DNA of 64,000 nucleotides from the NCBI GenBank assembly GCA_942159475.1, contig OW804099.1, forward strand, positions 12,274,119 through 12,338,118, read 5' to 3'. Positions 83-53,200 of the stretch are shown here, piece after piece (within the stretch, counting starts at the first letter, position 1; every line of letters starts with the position of its first letter). Source of the DNA: Sthenelais limicola (Eukaryota > Annelida > Polychaeta > Phyllodocida > Sigalionidae). The notes under the pieces are model-generated. The model was not told the DNA's origin, did no database searches, and saw only the letters and a list, made by a program, of their open reading frames with translations. Made by a program: the position numbers and the translations under genes.

Positions 83-3000
83 CTGCAGCATAGTAACAGT
101 TGTTATAGCAACACCCTATACACAGCATAGTAACAGTTGTTATAGCAAGACCCTATACACAGCATAGTAACAGTTGTTATAGCAAGACCCTATACACAGC
201 ATAGTAACAGTTGTTATAGCAACACCCTATACACAGCATAGTAAGAGTTGTTATAGCAACACCCTATACACAGCATAGTAAGAGTTGTTATAGCAACACC
301 CTATACACAGCATAGTAACAGTTGTTATAGCAACACCCTATACACAGCATAGTAACAGTTGTTATAGCAACACCCTATACACAGCATAGTAAGAGTTGTT
401 ATAGCAACACCCTATACACAGCATAGTAACAGTTGTTATAGCAACACCCTATACACAGCATAGTAAGTTGTTATAGCAACACCCTATACACAGCATAGTA
501 ACAGTTGTTATAGCAACACCCTATACACAGCATAGTAACAGTTGTTATAGCAACACCCTATACACAGCATAGTAAGAGTTGTTATAGCAACACCCTATAC
601 ACAGCATAGTAACAGTTGTTATAGCAACACCCTATACACAGCATAGTAACAGTTGTTATAGCAACACCCTATACACAGCATAGTAACAGTTGTTATAGCA
701 AGACCCTATACACAGCATAGTAACAGTTGTTATAGCAACACCCTATACACAGCATAGTAAGAGTTGTTATAGCAACACCCTATACACAGCATAGTAACAG
801 TTGTTATAGCAACACCCTATACACAGCATAGTAACAGTTGTTATAGCAACACCCTATACACAGCATAGTAACAGTTGTTATAGCAACACCCTATACACAG
901 CATAGTAACAGTTGTTATAGCAACACCCTATACATATAGAAACACCCTATGTGTAAAACCTTTAAACTAAAATAAACTACTATTGTAGAATTAACTTCTG
1001 CTTTAGTCTTGCATGTGAAAAGATTACTGCAATAACTCTAAGAACCCAAATATGGCGAAATTTAATAGTTAGCACTTTTTTAAAATTTTAAATGCACAAT
1101 AGAGACAGCCCTAGGCAGAATAGCACTGGTTTTGACAAGAATTTGTCCTGCTGTATAAAAATGTTGAATAATAAAAAAAAGTGTAATCTATGTACCAACA
1201 AATGCCTTAATAAAACAGCAAATACTTAAGTTTGAGGTTGTGGTGTTATTATTCAAATAATAATAATAAAAAGGTTTCTTCCCTATTTCACAATTTGTAT
1301 AAAGAAATTGTAGTTAAGTAGAGCCCTCCAGCAGGAGAGGCTGCCCACCTTTTTCATGGTATGTGCCATGGGGATGACGTTAGGGAAGACACGTGTGGGA
1401 CACAGGGTGATGACGACATCGCGCACCTCACTGTAGGAGGAGTGGAAGGAGTAGCAGGCGCGCTGGTACCGGGGCCGGTCATGCCGCGGGGTGACCAGGA
1501 TCTCCTCCATACCCACCTACAGAACAACACAGGAGTAGAATATAGTCAACAGGATTGTGTATTGTCATCAACACCTTATATTGTATGAGATATGCTGAGT
1601 CCACTGGGTCTACCTCCTGTAAGACTCTTAATTCCCAGAGTACTGATGTGATGCAATAAAGACTGGAGATTACTGACAAGGATCAACAGAGCCTGGACAT
1701 GTATCTGTCCATACAGATACTGGAACACTACACAATATATATAGTATATAGATACCAGTGTTCTAACCAGTATTTTTGTCAGAATGGTGGAAGTCATTGA
1801 TCTCAGCCCTTTTATCGGGGGTCGGGGGGAAATTTTGGACACATACTCTTTAAATGGTGCATTCTGGTGCATTTGCGATGAATAACTTGATACTGATACT
1901 TTTTAACACTTGTATTTGAAGGCTATTTTACGGAATCAAGCTCTAATTTTTTAGGAAAACATCAAACTATAAATGTAAATTGTAATCTATCATGATAGAA
2001 TTAGAAGACTTCTAGACAAGAGATATTGTTTTTCAAGGTCATAAGACACCAGAACACTCTAATCGTTTTGATACCTTTATTATAATTCTTCCCGATTTCA
2101 ACACTGGATAGGCTTTTTGACCCCGCTTTTGGAAACCTTGAGCACTGCAAAAGCAGTTCTCAGCGCCATGTTTAGATAGAGTGAGCGAGTGAGATTGGTT
2201 GCTTTACGCCCTTATCAATACATTTAATATGGTTATATCAAGGGTGGGAGAGCTGAGAGTGAGGCAGTGAGATTGGTTGCTTTACGCCCTTATCAACACA
2301 TGTAATATGGTTATATCAAGGGTGGGAGAGGTGAGAGGGAGTGAGATTGGTTGCTTTACGCCCTTATCAATACATTTAATAAGGTTATATCAAGGGCGGG
2401 AGAGCTGAGAGGGAGGCAGTTATTGTCATACCAAGGATATGGAGATGAGAAGAAGGGAGAGGGACAGAAAGGCACTTCATGGTCATACCCAGGACTAGTG
2501 CTATAGCTAGAACCCTGGCTACATACCTGCTGTGTGAACCACTAGTGCTTTAGCTAGAACCCTGGCTACATACCTGCTGTGTGAACCACTAGTGCTATAG
2601 CTAGAACCCTGGCTACATACCTGCTGTGTGAACCACATGGTGGACACCGTGATCACCTTCACGTGTAGTGGTTCCTCTGCCAGGCGGCACGGCAGCTTCC
2701 GCCCCTTCTTGTCTTTTACCTGCAACACAAACATCCAATGTATTTATCACTTGAAGTTTTATATATTTGATATGAGGATATGATCCCCATGGGCCACACA
2801 CACTATCCTGTGGCTTGATATACATTCCTGTCAACCCTGGGAATATATCACAAGATCTTATGTTCTTCAGACATTAAAACTGTTTGATAATAAATTTCTA
2901 CAATTATCTAACACTAACTATTTGTATCATTTTGTATTTATTTAGGAGGACCTGTAAGTCATCATGAACAAGAATCCCTAATTATAAAGGCAATGAATAC

Positions 3001-6000
3001 CTGAGACCACTTGCAGGCGTGGATCCTGGTGCTGGCTGCATCGTCTGTAGCAAAGTCTGGGAATGCCTTCACCGCCCGACACTCTCTGTACTTGCGCTCG
3101 GACACGTGAATCTAGCAAATACAGCAAACAGTCAGTGAGTGGGAAACTGGACATCCAGGCACATGATGGTCACATCTACCTTTTATTACGTAGTGATTTA
3201 ATAACTAGTAACAATGGTGGGATTTTACACTACTAACTAAACTTGAAAACCTGGTTGACTTGTTAATCGCTTTTTTTATGGGAGAACGCTGGATTCGTGG
3301 ATTTTGGAATTGTTGTTTTATTTATGCCCCACGTTTCAGATATCTTAGTATCCTTCCTCAGGGGTGCTGTGTACAATAATAACTAGTCAATAAGTCTAAA
3401 TATAATCTACCATAATACCCATCATGTAGTGATTTAATAACTAGTAAATAAGTCTAAATATAATCTACCATTATACCCATGTAGTGATTTAATAACTAGT
3501 AAATAAGTCTAAATATAATCTACCATTATACCCATCATGTAGTGATTTAATAACTAGTAAATAAGTCTAAATATAATCTACATTATACCCATCATGTAGT
3601 GATTTAATAACTAGTAAATAAGTCTAAATATAATCTACCATTATACCCATCATGTAGTGATTTAATAACTAGTAAATAATTTTAATGTGCACAAAATTAT
3701 AAATATTTTCCCCCAAATAAAGAACACAGGGCTTGTATACACCAGCGTCACGTATAATGACTAGGAGGAGACCCACCTTAGTGTTGAAGTGTTTGGCAAT
3801 TTCTATAAAGAGATGTTCATATCCGAGGCCGGCCTTGTGGTTGATGAAGACTGCGTGCTGTGGGCTGGTGTTGATCCAACTCTCCATGCAGGCTATGATG
3901 GTGGCTGTACTCTCCTCCCTACTGGGGATGTAGTAGGCTTCAGGCACACAGAACGTGGTGTCGATGTACAGGCTGTCTATGGGCTTCACACTACAACAAA
4001 CAACATTTACACCCTCAGTAAAAGAACAAGAATTGGTTGAGTCCACAGCTGTCTATTGGCTGTACACTATAGCAACAGAACAAGAATTGGTTGAGTCTAC
4101 AAGACCACAGCTGTCTATTGGCTGTACACTATAGCAACAGAACAAGAATTGGTTGAGTGTACAAGACCACAGCTGTCTATTGGCTGTACACTATAGCAAC
4201 AGAACAAGAATTGGTTGAGTGTACAAGACCACAGCTGTCTATTGGCTGTACACTATAGCAACAGAACAAGAATTGGTTGAGTGTACAAGACCACAGCTGT
4301 CTATTGGCTGTACACTATAGCAACAGAACAAGAATTGGTTGAGTGTACAAGACCACAGCTGTCTATTGGCTGTACACTATAGCAACAGAACAAGAATTGG
4401 TTGAGTGTACAAGACCACAGCTGTCTATTGGCTGTACACTATAGCAACAGAACAAGAATTGGTTGAGTGTACAAGACCACAGCTGTCTATGGGCTTCACA
4501 CTATAGCAACAGAACAAGAATTGGTTGAGTGTACAAGACCACAGCTGTCTATGGGCTTCACACTATAGGAACAGAACAAGAATTGGTTGACTCTACAAGA
4601 CCACAGCTCAACTTTGACTAACAGACAATGGATATGGATGAACAGATAACACTTCGTTCTACTGAATCTGCTTTCAAGGAGAAATATTTTTAACCTAAAG
4701 TTCACCTAAAGAGAACAGATAAATTAAGTTGGAAGTTTACAGGGAAATTGCAAAAAGTTCAGTTTTACTGAAAATTCAGGTAAACCAAGTTCAGATACTG
4801 ACCTGGTGCCTGAGTGTAGACACTCTATCCTACCCACGTCTCCCTGCGCCAACCGGAAGTCACCCGTGTAGAGCGCACGTCCCTCGCCCCCCTCAAACAG
4901 GAACCTGGAGCACAAACATGTCACATGCAATTATTATCATAATTATTACTGGTATTATCATAAGTTGATATATAACCAGCTAAACACACCTTTCTATCTT
5001 GTAAAGCTAAGAATCCAATAAGAAAATTTCAGAACCACCGTTAAAACATGACATAGCCATATATTTTTACACTCAGTAACTGGGTTATACTTTTTGATTT
5101 CACTATTGATATAGTCAGCAGATCAAATACTAGGCTTCGTCTATATCAAGTTAGAAACATGTGTAACAAACTATGGCAGCCAAGTTTAACCATATTTAAG
5201 GGGCACTCGGAGGATATGTGATAATCAGATTCCTCTTTCCACAATTTGTTCTCTTTAATTCTACATTGTATGACACTAGTTCAAGAGTTGTAATGTGATA
5301 TGGAAATAAAAATCTATTATTATAATGTAACTAGTCGGCTTGTTTCACATAATTCTAGAATTCAGAAATATCGAGGCAGGCATTTCAGAATTCCCCTGTC
5401 AATAAGGCAAAAACTACTCAGGACAATATGAGCATTAACATGAACTTTCAAATAGGGAGGTATAATTGACCATTCCAAATAGAATACAGGGGGATGTATA
5501 TTAGAATTGAATTGCCTCTGAATATTCTACAAAAATGGCTATAAATATCTGTTACATTATTATAATATTGAGCACATGAAGTAAGTGTAAGTTTAGTGAG
5601 ACGTACATGATAGATCCTGGGCAGTGGCCGGCAGGTATGGCGGTCACCGTCACGCTATACTGGGTCTGCAAGATAATAAATTAGTTACTTACATAAGGCT
5701 TTCCACGGTAGGACAGTTTGAGTAGTTTCTGTCAAATGTTGGTAATGGTGTTGATGATTATGTTAAACCTTGATATTACTTATGAACATTTTTTTTAGGA
5801 CTTTATCATGATGAATATAATTTAAATGTGGCACCGTCTGAAACACATCGATGGTGGATTTGGGTTTTTTTCAGTTTTGATGTAATTGTAAATGTTATGC
5901 CCTAAATGAATAAAAAAAAAAAAAAAAAAGGTACAAACATGGCTGCCATCAACACCTCCTGCTTCACACAACAAGGCAGTATTTTAGTCATGAAATTGTG

Positions 6001-9000: not shown

Positions 9001-12000
9001 AGTACACCACCACATAATAACACGCGGTAATAGACACAAGTACTCTACACATAAAGCACATATGTGATATGTGAAGTTTGTTACATGGATTCATATGACT
9101 ATAAGTTCTAAACCCTAAAAAATCAGAACATTTCAATTAAGAGCTCTTGTGATTAAATCACTTTGAAAAAATATCAATTTTGCGACTTGTGACTCATTTT
9201 CCTGAAACACATCACATATAGAGCCAGACATGTAATCAGTGTTGTTCAATATCACCAACTCTACTCTAGTGCCAGGATATGATAGCCAATGCTGGTGGGT
9301 ATATTTATGTACAACACCTCTGCACTGGCAAGAAGGTCGACTATCAGATAATAGACTCAAACAAAAAAAAACAATAGAAAAATCAATATGGTCTGACAAG
9401 AATGTTATTGATTAGCATATTGTTATAATCAGAGATTAAAAGGGAAAATGTGCCATGTTTAGTACCATACAAACTGCAACAATATAAAAAAGTGAATCAC
9501 TTTCAGTTATTGACGAAAGTGATAATGTCCGCTCATAAAAATAAGTGTAAAATAAGATAAAGAAGGATTGAAAACCTCCCATGAGCTGACAATTCCTTCT
9601 TGTTGCAGTCCGAACAGTGAATAAATCTTCTAAATTTAAAATCTCAGTAGTTATCTCTAATGTGGGTATGTGCACAGTAATCGCCCTGGCTTCCACTTTG
9701 TAGGAGAGAACAAATCATAAATGGTGGAATTGTTTAAGACTTTCTTCCTGTGGTCAACAACAAAATGGCAATGGCTAGCTGGACTACAGCACTGTCCACT
9801 AGACATGTCACCACCACAGCACTGACCACTACAGTCATGTGACCACCACAGCACTGACCACTAGTCATGTCACCACCACAGCACTGACCACTACAGTCAT
9901 GTCACCACCACAGCACTGACCACTAGACATGTCACCACCACAGCACTGACCACTACAGTCATGTCACCACCACAGCACTGACCACTAGTCATGTCACCAC
10001 CACAGCACTGACCACTACAGTCATGTCACCACCACAGCACTGACCACTAGACATGTCACCACCACAGCACTGACCACTAGACATGTCACCACCACAGCAC
10101 TGACCACTAGTCATGTCACCACCACAGCACTGACCACTACAGTCATGTCACCACCACAGCACTGACCACTAGACATGTCACCACCACAGCACTGACCACT
10201 AGACATGTCACCACCACAGCACTGACCACTAGTCATGTGACCACCACAGCACTGACCACTAGACATGTGACCACCACAGCACTGACCACTAGTCATGTGA
10301 CACATTTGCATATGTGGTGGCGCCCCCTGGTTTTCCAGGCAACAATCTGATTTTTCATTACTAATTATTAATTAGTTAGAAGGGGGGGAGGGAAATGGTT
10401 GCTTTACGCCCTGTTTTGACACCCTTTTTTTTGTATATTTTATCAGGGCGAGAGAGGAAACACGCTAACAGGATACGATACCCAGCTTTGGGAGATCCCA
10501 GATGTACATTGCCTGTTTGTACTGTTATAAACACAAATAAAGACTTGAACAATGAGTTACCGTAGTGGCCCGTTCATAAGCTCGGGCTTGTATTTGTTTC
10601 GACCCACCTCTAGCCCCAGCTTGCAATTGAGATAGGCTTTTAATCGAGAATTAGATTTTAGAGGATTTTATTTTTTCATGACCCCTACACCCCCGTCTGT
10701 ATTCGAGATAGGCTTTTGAATAGGTCCCGGCTTATAAACAGGCCACTATGGCATTTACCCCCACCCCAACCCCTCCACCCTAATGGTGTATAAGACAACA
10801 GTTACCATAGACTTACCCCCACCCCGCCACCCTAATGGTGTATAATACAACAGTTACCATAGACTTACCCCCACCCCGCCACCCTAATGGTGTATAATAC
10901 AACAGTTACCATAGACTTACCCCCACCCCGCCACCCTAATGGTGTATAATACAACAGTTACCATAGACTTACCCCCACTCCTCCCCCCTAATGGTGTATA
11001 ATACAACAGTTACCATAGACTTACCCCCACTCCTCCCACCTAATGGTGTATAAGACAACAGTTACCATAGACTTACCCCCACTCCTCCCCCCTAATGGTG
11101 TATAATACAACAGTTACCATAGACTTACCCCCACCCCGCCACCCTAATGGTGTATAATACAACAGTTACCATAGACTTACCCCCACTCCTCCCCCCTAAT
11201 GGTGTATAATACAACAGTTACCATAGACTTACCCCCACTCCTCCCACCTAATGGTGTATAAGACAACAGTTACCATAGACTTACCCCCACCCCGCCACCC
11301 TAATGGTGTATAATACAACAGTTACCATAGACTTACCCCAACCCCTCCCCCCTAATGGTGTATAAGACAACAGTTACCATAGACTTACCCCCACCCCTCC
11401 CCCTAATGGTGTATAAGACAACATTTACCATAGACTTGTCCAAGTGTTTGAATCTCTCATCTGCCAGCAGCAAGTCACATGTTACCTCAGAGCAGTAGAG
11501 CTTCATGTGGCAGCTGGAAACATACAAAGTACACAGGGTGAAATAACTGTCATACAGAATTTTTTAGTGAATACAAACAATTTTGTAGCACATACGTTGG
11601 GGGTAATAATAAGGTCAATTTTAATCAATGGTAGAAGGGGAGAATATCGCTGTATATCGGTTAGGGCCGGGGTGGAAATGATGAATCGATGTAGATATCA
11701 TTAAAAGTTGTTGATTTTGATTTTATTGATTACACAAGCTTTCGGGCTATGGACGCCCTTCTTCAGGTGTCAATTTTAATCAAGCTTTAAGTTATATTAA
11801 TAGAAATTTCCTTCCTTACATGAAGTGAGTCCATATATTCAACCCATAATATATTCCAGGGGCTTGAAAAAACCTATGTTTACTTGCCCGGGGCAAGTAA
11901 AAAATGTCTCTGGACAAGTAAAATTTAATGTTAAAGGTCCCCACCCCACCCCCCCCCCCCTTAAAGGCCGTACGAGTGCCAAAGGCGCTTGTACTAGGAA

Positions 12001-14037
12001 ACCGTATATAGGTTCCACTTTAACCTGCTGTATTTGGGTGTCGGCGCTCAGGGTATAAATATGAAAACACAACTCAGCATCCTGCCACCTGATTTTCAGA
12101 CACACTTGCATACATACCACAGAGAATTTATGCACCCGCAAACTAATATAAAACACTTTTTCCATTCGAAACACATTGACAAGATGTCAAAATAAAGAAA
12201 GGGCATGATTTTCTACCGCCAACTATGAAAATTTATTGACACAGGTTTTCAAATAAGGAAGATATGAGGGAAACTTTACTGTTGTATCAGTAAACAATAG
12301 TTTGACAAATTTTCAGCGAGATTGAACATAGACAGTTAGTGAAATATTTATTTTCATCAATATTGGTCCAATAAGAAAGATCGGAGGGAAAGTAGGCCTA
12401 AACATTCTAGCTGCATGCCCGATGCTGGCCACGATGCAATAATGTACGTCCTAATGTATGCAACATCAGTAAGGCAACATGATGAATCAATGGAGTCCTT
12501 GACAACACTTTTTCCCATGTGGGGGATCAATTGCAAGAGGGGGAGGGGGAGCAGTCTTTATTTGTTCTACCCAATTTAGGGGATTCGGGGGAAACCATTG
12601 TTTTCTTGGTCACAGCCAAAATTTCTTGTTTAAGTCTAACAAAGGGATAAAATATCCTGTCAAATAGGCAACAGGATTTTAAACTTGGATAAGTTTTATA
12701 TTAACTATAAAGTTAACGTACACACAGATTAACTGTGGGTGCAAGATGAGAGTCAGAATTGTTTTTCCTGACTAGTGATGAACCATTTGATATGTACGAC
12801 TGAGCTGAGCAAGCTCACATAGAACGTTGCACCATGTCTCACTTGGTAACCATTGTTGTTACCATAGGATGTGAGTTTTTCATTGGTTCGCAACACGTTT
12901 TTTAGTAACTGTGTTTGTCAGGTTCTGTTTACATCACAATAGGATGAGAGTAGCCTGATGAACCATTTGACAGGTCACTTTTGAATTGTAGACCCGATTT
13001 GGGGCAGGTGAGTTTTTGAGACGGGCACTTACAAGTGTTGGGGCAACTCACACTCCACTGTACAATGGTATTGATGGAACGGCAGGCATTGGAGGAAGGG
13101 ACTGACCCTTCTCCAGACTAGTCAATGGACCTAAAAATAAGTGTGTCCACCTTGGACACTGGCTCAGTGATTGGACGAGGTCTGTTATTCATGAATCCCC
13201 GAAAATCTCTAAGGTGTCTGACGAGAAGGTGAAAGAAGGGATGGCTGGAGGATTGATATGTAGTACTAAGTCTTTTGATAAGGATACAATTATATATTTA
13301 ATGAATCTATAATTAGCTCTACCTGATTTTATGAAAGAGAAATCAAATCGTTTTTCGATCAGTTTAAAAAGTAAGAAAAGGCTATGAAGTTAGTAAATTG
13401 TGTTCCTAACAGAAGGAAGATGATTCCCACAATTAGCCATAATGTGTGGAGCCCTGGCAGAAACCATGTAGTTGATATGGCTTCTTTCTCTCCAGGGTCT
13501 CCCATGTTTTGGTCCAAAGAAATTCCAGGCCTTTCCGTTTCCAGGCACATTTACAGTGATTTTCCAGACGAAATCAAGGGCAAGGGGTTGTATTAATGTT
13601 ATTCGTAAGCCAATGATGCATTTGGCAATTTTTATATTCATTTTTATATCAATCACTGTTTTTCCACTTTTACTTTTGAGTCACTGAGTGTAAGGTGCGA
13701 GAGGTCAGGGGGAAATGTAAGAAAATAAGAAATAACATATTATACTCACTTGCTCTTGAGCCGATACGTGAAGTTATTGGACGCCAGACCAACCATATGA
13801 TCTACAAAACAAACATAGAAATATAGGTTCCAGAGGAATGAAAATTAAGATATTATATATGTATGTATGAAGATACGAATAAATGGTCTATTTTGGTCAC
13901 AGTGTCTGCATCTGGGCATTTGGCAGGTAGGCTCGTTCTGAAAGAGCGCGCGTATGTGAGGGCTAGAAAGGTGGAGGAGAGAGAGGGAGATGGAGAAGAG
14001 AGAGGGGGGGGGGGGGGAGAGACAAGACAGAGAAAAC

Positions 14038-14080
<43 letters not shown>

Positions 14081-15202
14081 GAGGGAGAGAGGGGGAGAAC
14101 AGACAGGAGAGAGAGACGGAGGAGAGAGAGAGTTTTAAAAGCTTAACTCTAAGCGAGAAAGGTGGAGGAGAGAGAGGGAGATGGAGAAGAGAGAGGGGGG
14201 GGGGGAGACAAGACAGAGAAAACAGGAGAGAGAGAGAGAGATGGAGGAGGGAGAAAGGGGAGAACAGACAGGAGAGAGAGACGGATGAGAGAGAGAATTA
14301 AGCTTAACTCTAAGATGATGTTCCAATTCAATAATTAAAGGGTTAATTTTCGGCGTTAATTTGACCTACAAATATCCCTATTGGGGTCAAAGTGTGCATG
14401 GCCTCCTCTAAGAGAACTGTAGCATAGTTCCCAGTTAATTCAAAAACATAAAGTAACTTGTGGTAGCCTATGGTCAGGTGTCCTGGGGAGGACTCATAGT
14501 ATCGCCACCGTCCCACATTAACCCGCCCATGAGTGACAGGGAAGGACGTAAATTTACTAAAAGAAGCCATACTAAATGTTCCCTAGAAAAATTAATTGTT
14601 CACCAAATAAATATCATGCCAATAATGCTACATTGTGGTGTAGAAGCATTCAAATAATATAATAAGCATTCATTTTTAAAACTTTACACATATTATATGA
14701 TTATAAAGAGAGACAAGAACAAATATAGGTTCCAGAGGCAGAGGAGTGAAAGTTAAGATGTATGAAGCTTTGAATAGATGGTCTCTTTTGGTCAGGAGTT
14801 TCTGCATTGGGCAGTTGGGAGAGAGATAGAGACAGGGAAAGAGGGGCAGATAGAGAGAGAGGCGGGGGGGGAGATAGAGAGAGAGCAGAGGGGGGGGAGA
14901 AAGAGGAGAGGAGAAAGGGAGGGAGAGGGGGAGAGGGGGAGAGGGAGAGAGAGAGAGGGAGGGAGGGAGAGAGAGAGAGAGGGAGAGAAAGAGAGGGGGG
15001 AGATAGAGAGAGAGCAGAGGGGGGAGAAAGAGGGGAGGAGAAAGGGAGAGAGGAGAGAGAGAGGGAGAGAGAGAGAGAGGAGAGAGAGAGAGGGAGGGAG
15101 GGAGGGAGGGAGGGAGGGAGGGAGGGAGGGAGGGAGGGAGGGAGAGAAAGAGAGGGGGGAGATAGAGAGAGCAGAGGGGGGAGAAAGAGGGGAGGAGAAA
15201 GG

Positions 15203-15273
<71 letters not shown>

Positions 15274-15278
15274 GGGGA

Positions 15279-15348
<70 letters not shown>

Positions 15349-15349
15349 G

Positions 15350-15380
<31 letters not shown>

Positions 15381-16004
15381 GAGAGAGAGAGGACGGGGGG
15401 TAGAGAGATCAGAGAGTGAGTGTGTGTTCGACAGGGAGGGAAGCAAGCTAGACCCAGTCATTCTCACATGTCGCAAGTTTACCCCACATATCATAAAGGA
15501 CTATCCACACTGTATTAATTCTGGGGAACTCCAACTTTACACATAGAAGCCTACACTACAGTCTACACTAACAGACTATAGTAGACTAAAGACTTTAGCA
15601 CAAGCCTTACTACAATACAGCCCCCATACACTCATACAGCCATGGCGTCCTGTGTATCGACTATCGACTAGACCTTGGCCGCATGTTCTCTCTTCCCCTT
15701 ACACCACTATTTGTGCACTTATCCGTGGAATAAAACATAGCAACCAGGAGGAATTTTCACTTTTAAAGACAAAATATAGTGTGCACGGATGTGAGGATGA
15801 GAATGAGAGCACGAGGGCCGGGACATAACGACCATCAGCTGCTGCGTCTAGTACATAGCCTACTAGCGGCACCATGGTGTAGCAGGGTCACTTACCTTCG
15901 TGTTTGTGCGAGAGGAAATACACAGATGACTCCAAGTTCCGACCATCAAACCGGTCTATCGAGAGATCGGTGTACTCTCGCATAATTCCTCCAAAAGAGC
16001 TCAT
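1..16004 (-). CDS. DCLRE1C: Artemis nuclease gene (DCLRE1C), 3' end off window
   Basis: Artemis is a nuclear metallo-beta-lactamase/beta-CASP nuclease that, with DNA-PKcs, opens hairpins and trims ends in non-homologous end joining (family knowledge). The coding sequence is split over 15896-16004, 13750-13801, 11429-11513, 7023-7082, 5607-5665, 4803-4904, 3777-3990, 3001-3111, 2621-2719, 1349-1516 and 1-82, all minus strand and all with GT/AG ends and matching phases. It gives about 380 residues before the window ends. The start MSSF and the motif H33-K-H35-E-D37-H38 match Artemis. Further metal ligands are H116 in GHCPGS, D137 in TGDFR and D166 in DTTF. Beta-CASP residues H258 (RIHAC) and H322 (FHSSYSE) are also present. 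The catalytic core looks intact. The C-terminal regulatory tail is outside the window. Paralogues SNM1A/B fit less well because of the MSSF start and the FHSSYSE region. Confidence 0.95.
83..935. repeat. 37 bp minisatellite in DCLRE1C intron 10, about 23 copies
   Basis: Near-identical 37 bp units containing CAGCATAGTAACAGTTG and GCAACACCCTATACA. Copies differ mainly by C/G at one or two sites (AACAG/AAGAG, CAACA/CAAGA). On the gene strand the array ends four bases before exon 11. The unit's CTATGCTG is shared with the real acceptor CTATGCTGCAG. Confidence 0.95.
936..1348. other. Intron 10 remainder, no feature
   Basis: AT-rich intron sequence with short TAATAA runs near 1240-1270. I see no exon or element in it. 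Confidence 0.6.
1349..1516 (-). CDS. DCLRE1C: DCLRE1C coding exon 10 (FHSSYSE)
   Basis: 168 bases, phase 0, between TTCTGTAG and GTGGGC. It encodes [15 protein letters not shown] and [13 protein letters not shown], the conserved beta-CASP end of the catalytic region, with H322. Confidence 0.95.
2178..2430 (+). repeat. SINE-like TTTACGCCC repeat, three tandem copies
   Basis: Three head-to-tail copies of about 80 bp, each reading GATTGGTTGCTTTACGCCC, then ATATGGTTATATCAAGGG and a GAGAG tail. The same unit is at 27777-27960 and, diverged, at 10385-10551. The form (GAGTGAG lead, TTTACGCC core) resembles SINE-type repeats of gastropods, from memory. It lies in DCLRE1C intron 9. Confidence 0.75.
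2494..2635. repeat. 47 bp triplication spanning exon 9 donor
   Basis: Three 47 bp units. On the minus strand each has the last 14 bases of exon 9 (GGTTCACACAGCAG), then GTATGTAGCCAGGG. The real donor is at 2615-2620 and decoys are at 2568-2573 and 2521-2526. Confidence 0.93.
2621..2719 (-). CDS. DCLRE1C: DCLRE1C coding exon 9
   Basis: 99 bases, phase 0. It encodes [20 protein letters not shown] and ends STMWFTQQ, matching the family's STMWFGER region. The donor CAG|GTATGT and the last 14 exon bases are repeated twice more downstream in intron 9. Confidence 0.92.
3001..3111 (-). CDS. DCLRE1C: DCLRE1C coding exon 8 (beta-CASP RIHAC)
   Basis: 111 bases, phase 0 on both sides. It starts [14 protein letters not shown] and ends RIHACKWSQ, with beta-CASP H258. 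The acceptor is TTGCTAG and the donor CAG|GTATTC. A donor three codons earlier (AAGTG|GTCTCA) would also read as GT but breaks the phase. Confidence 0.88.
3210..3377. other. Possible retroelement terminus fragment
   Basis: Contains CACGTTTCAGATATC followed by CTTCCTCAGG, a hairpin-like pattern also seen near 11730, 29075 and 40975-41100. Such short ACGTTT..CTTC.TCAGG snippets are common at retroelement ends (Penelope-like or similar). The family is not determined. Confidence 0.3.
3378..3680. repeat. 58 bp minisatellite in DCLRE1C intron 7, about 5 copies
   Basis: Units of about 58 bp containing TAGTGATTTAATAACTAGTA and TAATCTACCATTATACCC. It stops about 95 bases from the exon 7 donor and contains no exon bases. 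A stray partial unit is at 3187-3212. Confidence 0.9.
3777..3990 (-). CDS. DCLRE1C: DCLRE1C coding exon 7 (DTTF motif)
   Basis: 214 bases between TTGTAG and GTGGGT. It encodes [14 protein letters not shown], then YYIPSREES and a beta-CASP stretch ([18 protein letters not shown]). D166 is a metal ligand. The first bases of this exon recur in the 62 bp tandem array upstream at 4030-4612. Confidence 0.95.
4030..4612. repeat. 62 bp minisatellite spanning exon 7 acceptor, about 9 copies
   Basis: Each unit holds, on the minus strand, a CTATAG acceptor-like end. In the two or three outer copies near 4486-4566 it is followed by exact exon 7 bases (TGTGAAGCCCATAGACAG); inner copies are diverged here. 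The rest of the unit reads CAGAACAAGAATTGGTTGAG on the plus strand. The array lies directly upstream of the real acceptor at 3990. Confidence 0.93.
4803..4904 (-). CDS. DCLRE1C: DCLRE1C coding exon 6 (TGDFR motif)
   Basis: 102 bases between CTCCAG and GTCAGT. It encodes [20 protein letters not shown] and following residues, nearly the family consensus. It carries metal ligand D137 and ends AG, completed to Ser by exon 7. Confidence 0.95.
5607..5665 (-). CDS. DCLRE1C: DCLRE1C coding exon 5 (GHCPGS motif)
   Basis: 59 bases between CTTGCAG and GTACGT. It encodes [20 protein letters not shown], which carries the zinc ligand H116. It ends AT, completed to Met by exon 6. Confidence 0.93.
6049..6272. 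mobile_element. Possible small inverted-repeat element
   Basis: Ends GAATGGTGTTCAGT and ACTGAATACCATTC are inverted copies with one mismatch in 14, about 224 bp apart. No clear target duplication and no second copy was seen, so this is tentative. It lies in DCLRE1C intron 4. Confidence 0.3.
6635..6943 (-). mobile_element. TACATAG MITE copy 1 (inverted orientation)
   Basis: A 309 bp element with inverted ends TACATAGATTCCACTGACGT and ATGTGAAATCTATGTA (read inward). Its interior matches, in reverse, the elements at 37295-37616, 46312-46631 and 63812-64000. Both ends carry TGACGTCA. It encodes nothing and is a non-autonomous DNA transposon by structure. Confidence 0.85.
7023..7082 (-). CDS. DCLRE1C: DCLRE1C coding exon 4
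   Basis: A 60-base, phase-0 exon (20 codons) between CTTGCAG and GTGAGT. It encodes [20 protein letters not shown], the less conserved strand before the GHCPGS motif. An inverted-repeat element (6635-6943) ends about 80 bases downstream of its donor. Confidence 0.85.
8124..8349. mobile_element. GGGTCAG MITE copy 1
   Basis: A 226 bp element with ends GGGTCAGATTTTCAGAAAAT and ATTTTCTGAAAATCTGACCC, flanked on both sides by ATAT (4 bp target duplication). It is related to copies at 23761, 30694, 56283 and 58028. It is non-coding and lies in DCLRE1C intron 3. Confidence 0.85.
8510..9770. other. DCLRE1C intron 3, unassigned sequence
   Basis: AT-rich sequence. Fragments near 8540-8590 (AAGGGATTCTCC, GGAGGTCTCCCG) and 9555-9610 (GAAAACCTCCCATGAG) resemble a fragment near 53216-53290 and may be old retroelement pieces. 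No coding exon was recognised. Confidence 0.4.
9775..10305. repeat. 30-31 bp minisatellite in intron 3, about 17 copies
   Basis: Units read CATGTCACCACCACAGCACT then GACCACTAG or GACCACTACAG. It gives long open frames of [10 protein letters not shown] type on the minus strand, but there is no sign that these are coding. It is more than 1 kb from the nearest exon. Confidence 0.93.
10385..10551 (+). repeat. SINE-like repeat, diverged single copy
   Basis: Contains GGTTGCTTTACGCCC and ATCAGGGCGAGAG, then a unique 3' part ending AATAAAGACTTGAAC. This may be the full-length 3' end of the element whose head is tandemly copied at 2178-2430. Confidence 0.6.
10745..11434. repeat. 52 bp minisatellite spanning exon 3 donor, about 13 copies
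   Basis: On the minus strand each unit has AAGTCTATG|GTAACTG, copying the last nine bases of exon 3 and its donor (real: AAGTCTATG|GTAAATG). Each also carries a second perfect GTAAGT in GGGGGTAAGT. Units differ in CCACCCCGCCACC versus CCACTCCTCCCCC. Confidence 0.93.
11429..11513 (-). CDS. DCLRE1C: DCLRE1C coding exon 3
   Basis: 85 bases encoding [20 protein letters not shown] and following residues, aligned to the family's YLYCSPVTKELLL region. The acceptor is TTTCCAG and the donor ATG|GTAAAT. The last bases of this exon are part of the 52 bp tandem repeat that follows in intron 3. Confidence 0.9.
11514..13749. other. DCLRE1C intron 2, repeat remnants only
   Basis: Holds a retroelement-like snippet at 11706-11775 (CACAAGCTTTCGGGC, then CTTCTTCAGG). 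A short near-palindrome at 11879-11899 centres on TGCCCGGGGCA. The rest is unassigned. No exon was recognised. Confidence 0.4.
13750..13801 (-). CDS. DCLRE1C: DCLRE1C coding exon 2
   Basis: A 52-base exon between TTGTAG and GTGAGT. It completes D37-H38 of the HxHxDH motif (DHMVGL) and continues with a stretch similar to the family. It ends in phase 2 (AA, completed by C of exon 3). Confidence 0.9.
13975..14300. repeat. Two (GA)n-rich blocks in DCLRE1C intron 1
   Basis: Two related purine blocks (13975-14130 and 14150-14295), each starting GAGAAAGGTGGAGGAGAG or close to it. They look like a segmental copy of each other. The plus strand is almost pure A/G. Confidence 0.85.
14812..15418. repeat. 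Polypurine tract of about 600 bp in intron 1
   Basis: Almost uninterrupted A/G on the plus strand: GAGAGA, GGGAGG and GGGGGG blocks, including a pure GGGA run near 15090-15145. On the transcribed gene strand it reads as polypyrimidine. The long Glu/Arg or Ser/Leu frames here are repeat artefacts. Confidence 0.95.
15896..16004 (-). CDS. DCLRE1C: DCLRE1C coding exon 1
   Basis: Residues 1-36 plus one base. It opens [20 protein letters not shown], as in other Artemis proteins, and ends in the first half of the HxHxDH zinc motif (FLSHKHE). The donor is GAAG|GTAAGT. The start ATG is at 16002-16004 and the reading frame carries into exon 2. Confidence 0.95.
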
Positions 16005-26372: not shown

Positions 26373-43745
<17,373 letters not shown>

Positions 43746-46311: not shown

Positions 46312-46631
46312 TACATAGATTTCACATGACGTCACCCAGTAGGCTGGGGTATCACAGTGGCTACCATGTCTGGGGTCACTGCTACGCTTGCCGTCTATGG
46401 CGGGGGTATCAAAACAAAGTTGATAAACCTCACAAGAGTATATACTTGGGTACGGTAATTCTACACTAAAGGCAGATGATCTAACCTATCATGAAGGCAT
46501 TATTGTGGCAGATTAAAACTGGTAAAGGTTAAAACAGCCAGAAAAGGATATTTTCAAGTATCGCAGCATACATAGCCATCTAACTTGACCCCAAACATGG
46601 CCAGGGCTGTGACGTCAGTGAAATCTATGTA
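46312..46631 (+). mobile_element. TACATAG MITE copy 3
   Basis: A 320 bp element with ends TACATAGATTTCACATGACG and TGACGTCAGTGAAATCTATG, flanked by TA. This is the best-preserved copy, with TGACGTCA at both ends. It inserted next to a copy of the GGTAGGGTAGTGGTCACTAC repeat. Confidence 0.9.
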
Positions 46632-47825
46632 TAGTACTGGACTTCCCGCGACCCACCGCTTCTGTAAGCAGAAGCTGCCAACGGCAGAATCAAAAGGCCG
46701 AAAGCAGTCGTACCGGTTATCACGGTCAAACGCCTATATACCGAGAACGACATTTATAGCTGTCTCTGCCCACCAAATACATGCTTATTGAGCTTAATCT
46801 CCATGCTCACTCCGACCGTATATTAGTAAGCAACGATATTAGCTAGTGATTACTGGAACAATATTGTCTATATTCAATGATAGGGTCAGGTATAGCTCGA
46901 AAGATCCCGTCGGGAAGATTCGAATTGACGGCCATTGCCGCGAAATATATCAACAAGGCCAAAAATGGTGTCTCCCAATACCGCCGCAAGCGCAACTGTA
47001 TCAAGCGCTGTTTAGCCATTGAGGCTAAACGGCGCTAAGGGTGGGGGTGCGGGAGCCGGGGGGTGGGGTGGTGGGCAGCATTGAAAATGAGAAAAAGATT
47101 CCATACTTATATGATACATGTATATAGCCTAAGACACCACAACCAAATTAATCTCGCGGTAATACTCTGGACTAGCTGGCGACAATGGCATAATTTTAAT
47201 TATGTAAAACATACCCAAAGCAAGAACATTCGCCATCACTCCTTCGGAGATGCCAAATACACTATACAGCTTCCTCCATGATCGGGAAACCCCCTCTATT
47301 TCTCATTGTCCAACACCCAAAAGTTACATGACTGCCTAAGTTAGAGCCTTAGGGAGAGATTGGACCAAGATTTTTTAGCTCTTACTGGTATAATTAGTGC
47401 ATAACAGACCTCTCACATTCACCCTTTATCTGCATGAGGACGTCGAAATCAGACATTGTTGTGGTCCTTACACCTTGTGGTAATGTGGTAAACTAACAGC
47501 AAGTGCCAGGAATGGTTTCTCACCCTCCCACGAGGTAGCGCCACCAGCAGCACCAGCCAAAACACTGGCCTCCAAACACTGGCCTCCATTAGCCGTATCA
47601 TCGGCAATGGAGGCCAGATGGATTGAAGCTCAAAAACGATAGGCCTATTATTTTGATGCGTCGGGAGACGCCAATGGGAGAGGGAAGCAGGTAGGGTGTT
47701 GACAGTGTTGTGGGCTGGATGGTGGGCCTACAATAACAGTCCATTCCATGTTTAGTAAAGTAAATAAATAGCCCAAGACTTCCATAGGCCTACGGCTACA
47801 CTGGTGCCATTATATTGTCTAGTCA

Positions 47826-47934
47826 ACCCTGGTAGGGTAGTGGTCACTACTGTAGTAGCGGTCAGCCCTGGTAGGGTAGTGGTCACTACTGTAGTAGCGG
47901 TCAGCCCTGGTAGGGTAGTGGTCACTACTATAGC
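47826..47934. repeat. 39 bp tandem repeat, about 3 copies
   Basis: Units read GGTAGGGTAGTGGTCACTAC then TGTAGTAGCGGTCAGCCCT. A related piece flanks the MITE at 46240-46311. Confidence 0.88.
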
Positions 47935-48872
47935 ATCAGTGGCGCCACCTGACAATATAATTATCTCATTAGTAGTTAGAGTTAGTTGAAAAACTATTCT
48001 ATAGGCAGATGTTTGGCAAAACACTGGTAACATGGTACACTATGAGAAATATAATTTCTATATTCCTCTCATGGATCTTTACTTTTATTTTATTTCCGAA
48101 GATAAGGGGCATACTGGATATTTCCTTCTATGCCTCGATGCTACAACGTGTTTCTGTTATTGTTGATTCGTCAGGTCGGGTGGGCGATGTCCGGTCACGT
48201 TTCACGTTGTAACTGGTAGAGATTTGTGTCTAGCAACCAGCACATTTTGTTATATTTTGAAATTAATATGCAAAAGAAAAATATATTCTATCATGAAATC
48301 TACTTATCATAAGTATTGTCACCATTTCCGAAGAAAGAAAGAAGGTCTGTAATGATTAGATTCAGCCCATTGTTTTCTACTCAACCCCCTGGACTATGGT
48401 CTGGTGCAAACATGCCATAGCAACCCATAGGGAGCAGGGTTAAAATTGCCAAGTTCCATCCTGGATTTCTTAAATTCTACAAAGTTTTGAACATTATCAA
48501 CCCCCTGTGTGTATTTTCTTGGCAATACTGTACATTTCTACAAAGAATCTAGAATTTTTTTCTCAGTTTTTTACTCTGTTCTAAGCAGGTGATATTGAGC
48601 AATTTAGCACTGGTAACCCAGAGGTACGGCGTTCATTGTCACCAGACAATATGGCGGCCAGTGCGGCTGATCACAGCGCCACTTGTAAAAAATCCCTTCC
48701 GTCCGACCTGACAAATATGGTAGAAACGGTATCATTGAGGCTGTAGGGGTGGTAGGTGGTGCCCCCTGCATGTTATCATGAAACTATGTCTTTACTCTCC
48801 CAGTCATTCGCGCCTTGGAACTGGAACATTACAACGTCTGGAAGGGCCATCTTTTTTTCACACTCTAAAAGT

Positions 48873-48905
<33 letters not shown>

Positions 48906-49699
48906 GGGGGAGGGGGCATCTTTTTTTGCAGACTCAGAACTACAATGATGTAACGTTAGTTGGGAATTTTTCGCAAATTCTCCACTCTCTCCCACCCCCA
49001 CCCCCAGTGGTTAAATATGAACAGTCCCTATAATACCTGATATTAAAGTAGACTTTTACTCCCCTTAATTGCTTTAATGTAAGTTTGGCTGTCCAACAAT
49101 CATATACCGGTACCATCTTATTTTCTTTCGGAAAGATTTATAGGCCTACCAACATAATATATTTGCAACAAAGACTCAAAATTTAATGCAACTCCTGACC
49201 TATTTGTGGTAGTATATTATGTATTATGATATATGACAGAATTTACTTATATTGTCTACAAATGATTTTATATGGACAACGCTGTAGTGTAGGATTAATA
49301 TTTGGGCCGTTATTAAAGAAAATGGGAAATAAGGCACCACCTAGCGGCGTTTTTGACAAATTACCCCCCCCCCCCCACACACACACACCAACACCCCTGG
49401 TACGGTACATACATGTACATTATAGAGGTCATTCTGCATACATAGTATACATTCCCACCAATTTGTTTTGGGTCAAACACACTGGCACTGCCCAACGCAC
49501 GTAGATAAGTAGGCCTCGAACACTGACTGACCCAGAAACAAATGCCTTTAGTTCAGAGTTAGCTAGAGTTCATGCTTCATGGCTTATACATTATGGTTCA
49601 TCATCATGGCTCTAAATTATAATAAATCCAAAGAAATTTAAATGTACTTTGTAGATAAGCAGAGCGCAGTGATCCAGAACATGATCGATGATATCATTG

Positions 49700-49973
49700 C
49701 AGTGTGCAACATAGTGAATTGGGAGACCAGAGACCGCCGGTCTCTGTCAAATTGTAACAGTGGAGACCGACAGGATTTTACAGAGACCGAAAAAAAGGGG
49801 GGTATTAATATGGTAATTAAAAAATAACCCAGAATAAGAAAAGTTAGAAAAGATAATTTTATCATTTGTTCATTTCATTGGAGACAGTCGGACTCAGCCT
49901 AATATCAATATCAGAGACCGACAGAAATTCAATGGGGACCTGGGCGTCGGTCTCTGAGTTATGTTGCACACTG
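49700..49973. mobile_element. 274 bp element with perfect 14 bp inverted ends
   Basis: Starts CAGTGTGCAACATA and ends with its exact reverse complement, flanked on both sides by TCATTG (6 bp duplication). The interior repeats GAGACCG several times in both orientations. The CAG start is hAT-like but the 6 bp duplication is not, so the superfamily is open. It ends about 170 bases before the PLEKHM1-like uORF. Confidence 0.8.
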
Positions 49974-50104
49974 TCATTGAGAGTTTTGTTCCCGTTAAAA
50001 CAATACATGTATCATTGTATGCCACTAGCAGTAGCAGACGACAAAATGAGCGATAAAGGGCCACTTAGCGCACAGGTCACGCGCGGTTCCCGGAAAATCA
50101 CGGC

Positions 50105-50114
50105 ACTCGCGAGA
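50105..50114 (+). promoter_or_regulatory. Palindromic CTCGCGAG promoter element
   Basis: ACTCGCGAGA matches the TCTCGCGAGA promoter motif at 9 of 10 positions. It lies about 75 bases upstream of the PLEKHM1-like start codon, a usual place for it. No TATA box was seen. Confidence 0.5.
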
Positions 50115-50144
50115 TTTACTTGAAAGCTGCGACAAAACATAAAC

Positions 50145-50171
50145 ATGGCGCTGGAAGCAGACAACTCGTGA
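50145..50171 (+). other. Upstream ORF in PLEKHM1-like 5' leader
   Basis: ATG at 50145 opens an 8-codon frame (MALEADNS) ending TGA at 50169-50171, 16 bases before the main ATG. Whether it lies in the transcript depends on the unknown start site. Confidence 0.5.
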
Positions 50172-50187
50172 TAAGTACAGGAGCAAG

Positions 50188-50209
50188 ATGAGTTTCCTGG
50201 GGCGATCAG
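50188..50209 (+). CDS. PLEKHM1: PLEKHM1-like coding exon 1
   Basis: Seven codons and one base (MSFLGRS plus G), donor TCAG|GTGAGT. The start was chosen because the frame runs into exon 2 with the right phase. Met 14 in exon 2 is an alternative start. Confidence 0.65.
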
Positions 50210-53200
50210 GTGAGTATGAGTGGCGAGCATACTGTAGAAACAACAAGTATATACCAGGGATTCACTAGGATCTCAGCACAGGGTGGATTATTGTATGGTT
50301 TGTGAATGGTTGCAACTGTTGTGCTGTAAATCTCTCCCACTCCTGACACAGTGACACATGATCCACCCCCTGATGCACAACGTCCACAAGTAGAGGTGAC
50401 GATGGGGGACGTTAGCCGTGTGGTGGTGCAGAGGCTGTAGTCTTTAGAAGTTCTGTCTATCATGTCTCAACGTCACAGGGCAAATACAAAGAGGTTAAGT
50501 CTAGAGCCTTGACATAAATAGGCCTACTACTACTAGTATTACTTTCCAGGAAGTTTTCCAGATAATATTTACTTCTTATGTTCTAATGTAATGTTGTGGA
50601 GGTGTTTTCCCGAATAAAGAGGGGAATGTAAACGTGCTGTGTTTACAAGGAAAGAACATTGTTCAGTGAAGTTGTGTACACCTTACCTAGCCCTCCCCCT
50701 GCCCCGTGCCTGGCCAGGGTATCTCTGAGATGTTTACATCAGCTATATGCAGGGACAAAAATAAATTTATGATGATATCAGATTCTGACTCAGCATCACA
50801 TATAATGGGTTACCTGTTATATAGGTGCATCGTCTGTTCCTACTGATGATCTTCCCTGTCCATTAATTAGCTTTAAATTGTTGTTTTCAATTTTAGTGAT
50901 ACACAAATTCTCAACATTTGGTTGTTCAACATTTTCTAAAATTTATGTTATCAAAATCTGATTTTTATGGGCATCAAATATTTACATTAGTTTGTTATTT
51001 AATCACGGAGGCGTCCAAAGTCCACAATTAATCACAGAGGTTATATGGTATGCAGTCAAGCGTAGTATCTGGTCATTGCTGGTTGGCCGCCAGATAAGAG
51101 AGTGTTTACTCACATTAATGATAATGTCATTAATGGTCCCCCTTTGCTCCCCTTAATTACCCATACATGTTAAGGAATGCAACCGCACATTTGGGTCCCG
51201 CTGTCCTCCTAGTGCGGACCCATATTTTCGTAGCACAGACACGCCGTTGGGACCCGCAACTTGGGACCCAAATCATGCAACCCCATTTTGCTAGCCTTAA
51301 ACGGACATCGCTCAATTAGTGCTTTTATAAGTAAAATGTTACATGGGACAGTCAACTATGCCTTTTACAGACTTATGACAACCAATTTAAGGTTAGGTTT
51401 AGGGTTAGTTTCGGTATTTATTCTATAGGAGGCTGAAAAATGCTAAAAAAAAATAAAGTGCGGACCCAAAGAGACAGGCACCAGACCCTGTGCGCAACTT
51501 TTCACAAATAAGAGGAGTGTGGGTGTTGCAAGACGCGCAAACCCAGAGGACCCGGTTTTCTGCCATTTTTTTCGCGTGCAGATGCATTCCTTGACATGTC
51601 ACTAATTACCACCAATGTGGACAAAATGTCCCCCAGCTGCTTGATTAATTAATTATTGGACCACATGTGAGTGGGGACTAAAACATAACCTTGAAAATAA
51701 AATGATAATTTCACAATAAGACAAAACCTGGTGGTCTGGAAAGGGTTTAGATTATTCTGTACAGGCTGGTACAACTTTTCTAAAACTTGTTCAGTAAGTT
51801 TGGCATGGCATTGCATGACTTGATCTGGAACATGCTGCCCCCGTGAACCTTGTACATCCGTATAACTCCACATGGTTGTATAAATATATTAAATAAGTCC
51901 CTGTGAGCCTTGTACATCCCTCTAACTGGCTGTATAAATCTGTTAAATAAGAAACCAATATTTGCAGGCCCGTCCCCGCAGGCCATGGCCAGGGAGAGCT
52001 ACATCAAGAAGAACATGACGGTTACGCTGGGGCTGGCACTCAAGACTTTACAGCAGAAACATGTCAACTCTGAAGAACCCATATACAGGTGAGTCTTGAC
52101 CTATATACTGGTGAGTCTGTGACCTATATACAGGTGAGTCTTGACCTATATAAGGTGAGCCTTGACCTATATACAGGTGAGTCTGTGATCTATATATAGG
52201 TGAGTCTCTGACCTGTATACAGGTGAGTCTGACCTGTATACAGGTGAGTCTGTGACCTGTATACAGGTGAGTCTGTGACCTGTATACAGGTGAGTCTGTG
52301 ACCTGTATACAGGTGAGTATGTGACCTGTATACAGGTGAGTATGTGACCTGTATACAGGTGAGTCTGACCTATATACAGGTGAGTCTGTGACCTGTATAC
52401 AGGTGAGTCTGACCTATATACAGGTGAGTCTGTGACCTGTATACAGGTGAGTCTGACCTATATACAGGTGAGTATGTGACCTGTATACAGGTGAGTCTGA
52501 CCTATATACAGGTGAGTCTGACCTATATATACAGGTGAGTCTGTCAACTTACTGTTTTTTTAATGTTTTGTTAGAGGAGATTCTGTTTCTAATTATGATA
52601 GGTTCTGATGGTTTTCATAAGGAATTAAAGATTTTATATACACATATATTTAATACAATTAATGTCAAAATTTGCTGACAGGCTACTAATAGTAAAAGTT
52701 TAAACCAATTTAGTTTTAAAAACCCTTACTTCATGAGAGTTACATATTAGCTTTCACGTCTAATGTTTCAATCTCACAGCAACTGAAGGATGTGTAAATT
52801 GTTTATTTGTCCGCTGTGTAGCAACTACATTTATTTTTTGACAATATAATATAGATACAAAATATCCAGTAATGATCACAGTTGCAAAGCATTTGTTCAT
52901 ATTGTTTGTTATTATTTTATTTTTTTTATTATTATTCTTTTATTTTGTGTCTGATACTTGATGAATGAATAGTGTATGTACTACCTCACCATGTATGCTT
53001 CCTTACCTTGAACCTATTAATCATTAATCACCACAATACAACCATTACATGTGCTTTCCTGCAGTGAGGATACGGCCAACACAGTGTGTAACATACTGGA
53101 GGCGGTCTTCCTCCACGGTCTCAAGGCATCCTTCACACACAAGGTAAGCACAGCTGTAGTATAGACCCTGTACAGATGTAGAATAAGCAGTGAACCACCT

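What the first reader, a model, noticed from the sequence alone, without database searches (positions are those of the whole stretch)
83..52542. Minisatellites anchored on exon-intron junctions in all three genes
Seen directly: at five junctions the tandem unit contains exon bases plus the splice site. These are DCLRE1C exon 9 donor, exon 7 acceptor and exon 3 donor, BRPF1 exon 12 donor, and PLEKHM1-like exon 2 donor. At three more the array starts within about 5-20 bases of the exon (DCLRE1C exon 11 acceptor, BRPF1 exon 8 acceptor and donor). Only a few arrays lie away from exons. Exon ends are a tiny share of the window, so chance placement is unlikely. Tandem duplication around AGGT sites is a known model for intron gain; here it appears to act repeatedly at existing junctions and build decoy splice sites. 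A splice-linked process (R-loops, reverse-transcribed intermediates) or selection on intron length is speculation.
Basis: partly seen in the sequence, partly recalled or inferred. Interest (0 to 1): 0.87.

Follow-up and report, generated by a model that had tools for sequence, protein, structure and literature searches.

The report
Repeat arrays built from splice junctions
Short DNA repeats in this invertebrate genome have grown out of the points where exons meet introns, multiplying splice signals; such 'mirage' repeats were already described in amphioxus, so this is a known kind of structure in a distant animal group, unusually dense in this stretch.

Summary
The anatomy is real. The window lies in a lophotrochozoan genome (1.13 Gb). 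At 5 of 45 mapped splice junctions an adjacent minisatellite repeats exon bases plus the splice site (DCLRE1C exons 3, 7, 9; BRPF1 exon 12; exon 2 of a PLEKHM1-like gene); at 3 more the array starts 3-24 bases from the exon. These are 8 of 15 strong arrays; the other 7 lie 77 or more bases away. Array edges sit at junctions more often than shuffling within introns gives, with P from 0.0002 to 0.037 by null and cut-off; minisatellites are dense throughout these introns. This is the structure called 'mirage' in amphioxus, here outside cephalochordates. One further case turned up at a CHD-like exon on another contig, but 23 sampled exon hits and 10 kb of neighbouring DCLRE1C sequence suggest that the window is a hotspot. 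Using 46 of 47 decoy sites would break the frame or bring a stop. I explain it as ordinary minisatellite birth and turnover, tolerated at exon ends because the exon-proximal site still defines the exon (inferred). No consistent R-loop signature was seen.

The parts
86..934 (-). 37-bp minisatellite, 23 copies, ends 3 bases short of DCLRE1C exon 11 (acceptor CAG at 83-85)
1..82 (-). DCLRE1C exon 11, 5' part (continues left of the window)
2494..2636 (-). 47-bp minisatellite, 3 copies, spans DCLRE1C exon 9 donor; 2 decoy donors CAG|GTATGT
2621..2719 (-). DCLRE1C exon 9
4043..4608 (-). 62-bp minisatellite, 9 decoy copies of DCLRE1C exon 7 acceptor with 19 exon bases; the two 5'-most copies are identical to the exon over those 19 bases, the 7 others share a variant; TRF edge 52 bases from the authentic acceptor, which is a diverged copy
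3777..3990 (-). DCLRE1C exon 7
10763..11437 (-). 52-bp minisatellite, 13 copies with the authentic one, spans the DCLRE1C exon 3 donor (AAGTCTATG|GTAA)
11429..11513 (-). DCLRE1C exon 3 (least certain exon: outside the Artemis alignment, next exon not found)
29303..29859 (-). 102-bp minisatellite, 5 decoy copies of BRPF1 exon 12 donor with 43 exon bases (PWWP-like codons), alternating A-B-A-B-A subtypes; one place only in the genome by DNA search
29817..29926 (-). BRPF1 exon 12
34886..35592 (-). 44-bp based compound minisatellite, 24 bases from BRPF1 exon 8 donor; junction probe finds no extra copy and no strong donor in it
35617..35718 (-). BRPF1 exon 8
35726..36273 (-). 61-bp plus 28-bp minisatellites, 7 bases from BRPF1 exon 8 (just upstream of GTTGCAG)
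52077..52544 (+). 21-23-bp minisatellite, 19 aligned decoy copies (20 strong decoy donors, mostly CAG|GTGAGT), spans exon 2 donor of a PLEKHM1-like gene (12 exon bases; exon ends at 52088)
51969..52088 (+). exon 2 of a PLEKHM1-like gene (RUN-domain hint only, E 0.13; start by an acceptor read by eye)

Best explanation
These are mirage-type minisatellites. A short stretch is duplicated in tandem (slippage or unequal exchange) and the array then grows and shrinks. Seeds arise from any local sequence, including a dispersed repeat. A seed that straddles an exon-intron junction is tolerated, because the copy nearest the exon is still the site that defines the exon; the others become intron filler carrying decoy splice sites. 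Inside the exon nearly all such changes are purged, so arrays end at, or a few bases over, exon edges. Shown: anatomy, a locus-specific unit at BRPF1 e12, modest edge enrichment, homogenised inner copies in one array. Inferred: neutrality, exon definition, mechanism of duplication.
For: Units begin inside the exon and carry the splice site at 5 of 45 junctions. Extra copies are found for 8-10 of 45 probes at +30 to +200 in the intron and 0-1 of 45 at 30-60 bases into the exon. Non-junction arrays exist in the same introns, and the 60875-63284 unit matches 38 further places on contigs C1-C9 (40 of 180 candidates scored). BRPF1 e12 array: one place only in 1.13 Gb. Inner copies homogenised and outer copies like the exon in DCLRE1C e7, as reported for amphioxus globin mirages (PMC3087553 section 16). 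Using 46 of 47 decoys would shift the frame or add a stop. Further case: CHD-like exon (name recalled) on contig C4, 41-bp x 4.6 array ending 12-15 bases from the exon, unit sharing 11 of 12 bases with the exon start.
Against: Edge enrichment in own-intron shuffles and the seed model (P 0.0002 to 0.037) hints that junctions may seed arrays more than random placement gives. Exon-derived bases in decoys differ from the exon by 8 synonymous and 4 nonsynonymous changes (24.5% synonymous expected, P=0.0024; 6:4 and P=0.018 without changes common to all copies), more coding-like than inert filler should be. No RNA data: exon definition at these junctions is not shown.
Confidence: 0.68

Rival explanations
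1. Junctions are active birth sites: the splice junction itself (co-transcriptional splicing, reverse-transcribed intermediates or AGGT-flanked breaks) raises the rate of tandem duplication, and new units are repeatedly copied from the exon end.
For: Own-intron shuffles: 6 of 13 arrays with an edge within 25 bp, 1.25-1.97 expected. Excess of synonymous changes in the exon-derived part of decoys, as if units had been copied from, or exchanged with, the working exon at different times. Alternating subtypes in BRPF1 e12. Tandem CAGGTRAGT arrays on contigs C1 and C2: at least 6 against 2 for the reversed motif.
Against: Seed-span model gives only P=0.033. Junction probes are not more repeated than intron probes. 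The donor-array counts are small, not normalised for how common the motif is, and most of those read are long satellites without an exon. Mixed strand skew gives R-loops no support.
Confidence: 0.2
2. Selection keeps the arrays: decoy sites or array length tune splicing or intron size (for example pausing, recursive splicing, intron-mediated enhancement).
For: Strong decoys persist (20 besides the authentic one in one array). C. elegans has a minisatellite over-represented near alternative splicing regions (PMC4039745, abstract seen).
Against: Three of eight junction arrays show neither decoys nor exon bases; TRF consensus units look unrelated; density at other exon loci of this genome is low.
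Confidence: 0.06
3. Assembly artefact: collapsed or expanded repeats in the contig.
For: No reads available; copies of some arrays are 98-100% alike.
Against: Contigs of up to 162 Mb; copies carry distinct variants in order; in amphioxus PGBD5 the same kind of structure was confirmed by re-examined and new sequence data (PMC3902484 passages); reading frames stay intact across the arrays.
Confidence: 0.04

Closest known systems
'Mirage' minisatellites of amphioxus (Adh3, globins BflGb6 and BflGb9, PGBD5, troponin C)
   Same: Tandem units spanning exon-intron boundaries at either the 5' or the 3' end of exons, decoy AG/GT signals, homogenised interiors with differing edge copies; unit length 10-160 bp (PMC3087553 section 16 read; PMC3902484 passages; Canestro et al. 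2002 not held, cited through these).
   Different: Here in a lophotrochozoan (BRPF1 tree), up to 20 decoys at one junction, eight junction arrays within 64 kb. Splicing and length instability not shown here.
Intron gain by tandem duplication of AGGT (Rogers model, from a reference list and recall; potato RdRp case PMC4974935, listing only; human repeats PMC2812944, passages)
   Same: Tandem duplication including a splice signal.
   Different: Those create a new intron; here duplicated units sit in what read as existing introns. No gained intron was looked for in relatives.
Intronic minisatellites of earthworm metallothionein genes (PMC12783039, passages)
   Same: Minisatellites in introns of a lophotrochozoan gene.
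   Different: Monomers of 178-181 bp on average in intron 1; the passages seen do not describe units that contain exon ends.

Membership tests
Mirage minisatellite | Tandem unit contains exon bases and the adjoining intron across a real junction | tested here: met
   5 of 8 junction arrays, one of them (DCLRE1C e3) at a less certain exon; the other 3 only abut
Mirage minisatellite | Units carry decoy AG or GT splice signals | tested here: met
   27 strong decoy donors in 3 arrays; DCLRE1C e3 has 12 copies of a weak donor like its own; the 9 decoy acceptors of e7 keep AG but none reaches the weakest authentic acceptor score
Mirage minisatellite | Regular splicing is not disturbed | not testable with these tools
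   No RNA; decoy use would break the frame or add a stop at 46 of 47 sites
Mirage minisatellite | Length differs between haplotypes or somatically | not testable with these tools
   One place only in the assembly for BRPF1 e12, no second haplotype, no reads
Mirage minisatellite | Interior homogenised, cluster boundaries excluded | tested here: met
   DCLRE1C e7: 7 copies share three changes, the 2 copies at the far end match the exon; read in one array only
Rogers-type intron gain | Duplication inside an exon yields a new intron absent in relatives | not tested
   Intron positions were not compared with those of relatives
R-loop-driven expansion | G-rich sense strand in arrays | tested here: inconclusive
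   Sense GC skew +0.23, +0.14, -0.04, +0.53, -0.16, -0.52, +0.65, +0.21 in the eight arrays: 5 positive, 3 negative

The most novel reading that the evidence does not exclude
Exon ends act as a conveyor: the working junction repeatedly donates fresh units to the array and takes sequence back from it, so that decoy exon fragments evolve almost as if they were coding, and mirage growth is a recurrent, junction-seeded process in animals as far apart as amphioxus and lophotrochozoans.
Probability: 0.2. Interest if true: 0.65.

Novelty: new member of a known kind. Interest (0 to 1): 0.42.

Why it matters
In the papers that I found, mirages are described only from cephalochordates. Finding them at several junctions of one lophotrochozoan locus, plus one on another contig, would mean that the process is either ancient or arises repeatedly. 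It gives natural tests of how the splicing machinery chooses one site among up to about twenty near-identical neighbours, and of the tandem-duplication route to new introns. It also warns gene predictors: in lancelet PGBD5 two such repeats were annotated as an exon that the authors left out of their model (PMC3902484 passage).

Tried and rejected
Genome-wide donor-array test by pattern (CAGGTRAGT three times, gaps 20-50): 597 matches against 49 for the reversed control, but a few long satellites make most of those listed. The control is 6 distinct arrays genome-wide, 2 of them on C1 and C2. The donor pattern has at least 6 distinct arrays on C1 and C2, its listing stopping within C2; with gaps 40-60 two more appear there (532 matches, 36 in its control, whose arrays I did not see). 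Of the arrays read, those in L029, L032-L035 and L036 are long satellites without a visible exon, and L030 (with L031) has at best a tiny exon (one search stopped with an error after its TRF table). So this is no proof of junction seeding. A count of the single motif for normalisation, a third donor pattern and an exon sample from myosin heads did not complete.

R-loop idea: no consistent skew. Exon 4 of DCLRE1C was not found. Organism: the BRPF1 tree puts it in Lophotrochozoa, outside molluscs, with two unnamed long-branched sequences; species not identified. PLEKHM1-like identity rests on a weak RUN hint (E 0.13) and the recalled human protein. Searches used an exon end one base off for that gene (52089 instead of 52088); the own-intron shuffles and donor scores were redone with the right base and the uniform shuffles were not. 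The uniform nulls (6 observed at 25 bp, means 1.06 and 0.57, 0 of 5000 each) are too easy, because arrays may fall far from any gene.

Papers: the statement that I found no mirages outside cephalochordates rests on searches of a library of open-licence papers, of which 41 listed 30 of 104 and 83 listed 15 of 115. Listed papers that I did not open include PMC3862624 (Conus introns), PMC4732748 (Lucina haemoglobin), PMC7960049 and PMC13078855. Canestro 2002 is not held.
Full report
What the window is. A 64-kb stretch of an animal genome: contig C6 at 12.27-12.34 Mb of an unnamed 1.13-Gb assembly in 161 contigs. Three genes were modelled. BRPF1 (minus strand, 14 exons, 43745 to 26373; EPL1, PHD and bromodomain hits; models; homologues). 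DCLRE1C/Artemis (minus strand; exons 3 and 5-11 modelled, exon 4 not found; best solved match Artemis, E 1.1e-71, over query residues 29-286, so exon 3 lies outside it and is supported only by weaker DCLRE1A hits from residue 4). A PLEKHM1-like gene (plus strand, exons 2 and 3; weak evidence). A tree of 42 BRPF1 proteins places the window's protein in a lophotrochozoan group (SH-aLRT 99), outside the mollusc group, with two unnamed sequences (98) and next to nemerteans (86). It is not with the cephalochordates.

Check of the observation. TRF gives 15 minisatellite arrays with score 200 or more and period 10 or more, 8387 bp, 13.1% of the window. Against 45 mapped junctions, 4 arrays run over a junction by 9, 12, 16 and 43 exon bases, one (DCLRE1C e7) has its TRF edge 52 bp away but its units hold 19 exon bases, and 3 end 3, 7 and 24 bp away. 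The other 7 are 77 bp or more from any mapped junction. So the eight named places are real, while 'only a few lie away from exons' is not right.

More than chance? Each array shuffled within its own intron: 6 of 13 intronic arrays with an edge within 25 bp, mean 1.25 (2 of 10,000 shuffles as high) or, if 45 bases of exon overlap are allowed, mean 1.97 (57 of 10,000). Within 10 bp: 3 observed, 127 and 372 of 10,000. Within 55 bp: 8 observed, 12 and 77 of 10,000. A model that asks how often a random unit-sized seed in the pre-expansion intron would straddle a junction expects 2.03 of 13 and 5 are seen, P=0.033. A probe test cuts the other way: 24-mers over the junction have extra copies nearby at 4 of 45 junctions, 24-mers 30-200 bases into the intron at 8-10 of 45, 24-mers 30 and 60 bases into the exon at 1 and 0 of 45; further in, at 100-200 bases, 3-7 of 44, as the probes leave short exons. 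The introns are crowded with arrays, and arrays end at exons. The window was also picked out by a reader because it looked striking, so these P values are generous.

Inside the arrays. Copies were read one by one. DCLRE1C e3: 13 copies at 51-52 bp. DCLRE1C e9: 3 copies at 47 bp. BRPF1 e12: authentic plus 5 copies at 100-102 bp, alternating two subtypes. PLEKHM1-like e2: 20 aligned copies, steps mostly 21-23 bp. DCLRE1C e7: 9 decoy acceptors, the two at the far end with the exon's own 19 bases and seven sharing a variant. Strong donors (at or above the median of 22 authentic ones): 3, 6 and 21 sites in the e9, e12 and PLEKHM1-like e2 arrays, the authentic site included; none in the other 11 arrays scored; 2 in 15.7 kb of non-array intron. 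Weaker sites (score 5 or more) occur in e3 (15) but also in two arrays away from mapped junctions, 9786-10298 (16) and 60875-63284 (38). In the acceptor arrays only two CTTGTAG sites in e7, besides the authentic sites, reach the weakest authentic acceptor on my matrix; the nine junction-like decoys do not. Use of a decoy would shift the frame or bring a stop at 46 of 47 sites; the exception adds 51 bases at DCLRE1C e3.

Coding footprint. Over the exon-derived bases of the five arrays, decoys differ from the exon by 8 synonymous and 4 nonsynonymous distinct changes (24.5% synonymous expected with transitions weighted 4 to 1; P=0.0024); one change in a partial codon and the codon at the PLEKHM1-like unit edge were left out. 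Without the two changes present in every copy of their array: 6 to 4, P=0.018. All four changes in BRPF1 e12 are synonymous; e3 and e9 show none. Copies in an array are not independent and the test was thought of after seeing the data, so I treat it as a hint that units were copied from, or exchanged with, the working exon more than once.

The rest of the genome. Twenty 10-kb stretches at preset round coordinates: 18 arrays, 3.0% of 200 kb; none of the 18 has a donor at the median of the (one base off) matrix, 4 of 15 in the window do. Of 47 PHD hits I read 23 with 1-1.5 kb flanks: the best 8, then 15 chosen by me, leaving out hits that looked like repeated elements; two of the 23 (L039, L040) still look like copies of one element, and exon edges were estimated for 18 only. 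In these 55 kb there are 2 distinct arrays. One is a junction array in a CHD-like gene (name recalled; C4, L004 1278-1467, exon from 1480 or 1483): unit and exon start share 11 of 12 bases, score 19, reached by 0 of 387 other 60-mers of the locus and 0.4% of shuffled units. The other (L007) is about 790 bp from the exon. Ten kilobases left of the window hold DCLRE1C exons 11-13: no strong array lies in the two introns, so at none of four junctions (the exon 12 donor was not located exactly); three strong arrays lie beyond the last coding exon and one of score 217 inside its coding sequence. Window 8 of 45 against 1 of up to 50 edges elsewhere: Fisher P=0.012; for spanning arrays alone 5 of 45 against 1 of 50, P=0.098. 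So a junction array does occur elsewhere, and this window looks like a hotspot. Pattern searches for tandem CAGGTRAGT donors gave 597 matches, 49 for the reversed control; as distinct arrays on C1 and C2 at least 6 against 2, and those whose sequence I saw were mostly long satellites. This is inconclusive.

Local or dispersed? The BRPF1 e12 array region matches one place only. The large array at 60875-63284, away from any mapped junction, has a unit of which about 60 bases match 38 further places on contigs C1-C9: its seed looks like part of a dispersed repeat. This supports a process that expands any local seed.

Known work. 'Mirages', tandem duplications of exon-intron boundaries, are described in amphioxus globins, with Adh3 cited (PMC3087553, section 16 read whole; other passages), and in PGBD5, with globins, Adh and troponin C cited (PMC3902484, passages). 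The globin authors note duplication of both 5' and 3' boundaries, RT-PCR results that suggest regular splicing, length instability, homogenised interiors and a possible route to new introns. Human minisatellites at exon-intron boundaries can make new introns (PMC2812944, passages). I found no report of mirages outside cephalochordates in the searches listed in Tried and rejected, which cover open-licence papers and capped lists only.

Conclusion. A known kind of structure in a new animal group, real and locally dense, with moderate evidence for more than random placement. The most likely account is neutral minisatellite turnover that exon definition tolerates at exon ends.

Noticed in passing
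60875-63284: 64-bp x 37.7 array whose unit shares about 60 bases with 38 further places on contigs C1-C9; a partial copy lies near window position 58908.
   Followed up: partly
2178-2420 and 27796-27966: Two tandem arrays in different genes have similar units (GTGAGA.TGGTTG.TTTACGCCC...), each lying next to another minisatellite array.
   Followed up: no
29303-29859: Decoy copies of BRPF1 exon 12 alternate two subtypes (A-B-A-B-A), a small higher-order repeat; all four exon differences are synonymous.
   Followed up: partly
L036 (C2:153.856 Mb) and C2:154.52 Mb: Two 23-bp satellites about 660 kb apart whose unit reads TTGCTTTCATACAG|GTAAGT, like a joined acceptor and donor (recursive-splice-like) repeated many times; no exon visible in L036.
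   Followed up: partly
L004 1278-1467: Junction array at the acceptor of a CHD-like PHD exon on contig C4, a separate mirage-like case.
   Followed up: yes
13960-15400: GA-rich stretch in two blocks.
   Followed up: no
L052 7281-7573: Glu/Lys-rich low-complexity coding repeats in the large last exon of DCLRE1C, left of the window.
   Followed up: no
G000 C2:120.48, C3:48.78, C6:14.08 Mb: Three PHD-domain hits with identical scores, perhaps copies of a mobile element that carries a PHD-like finger.
   Followed up: no
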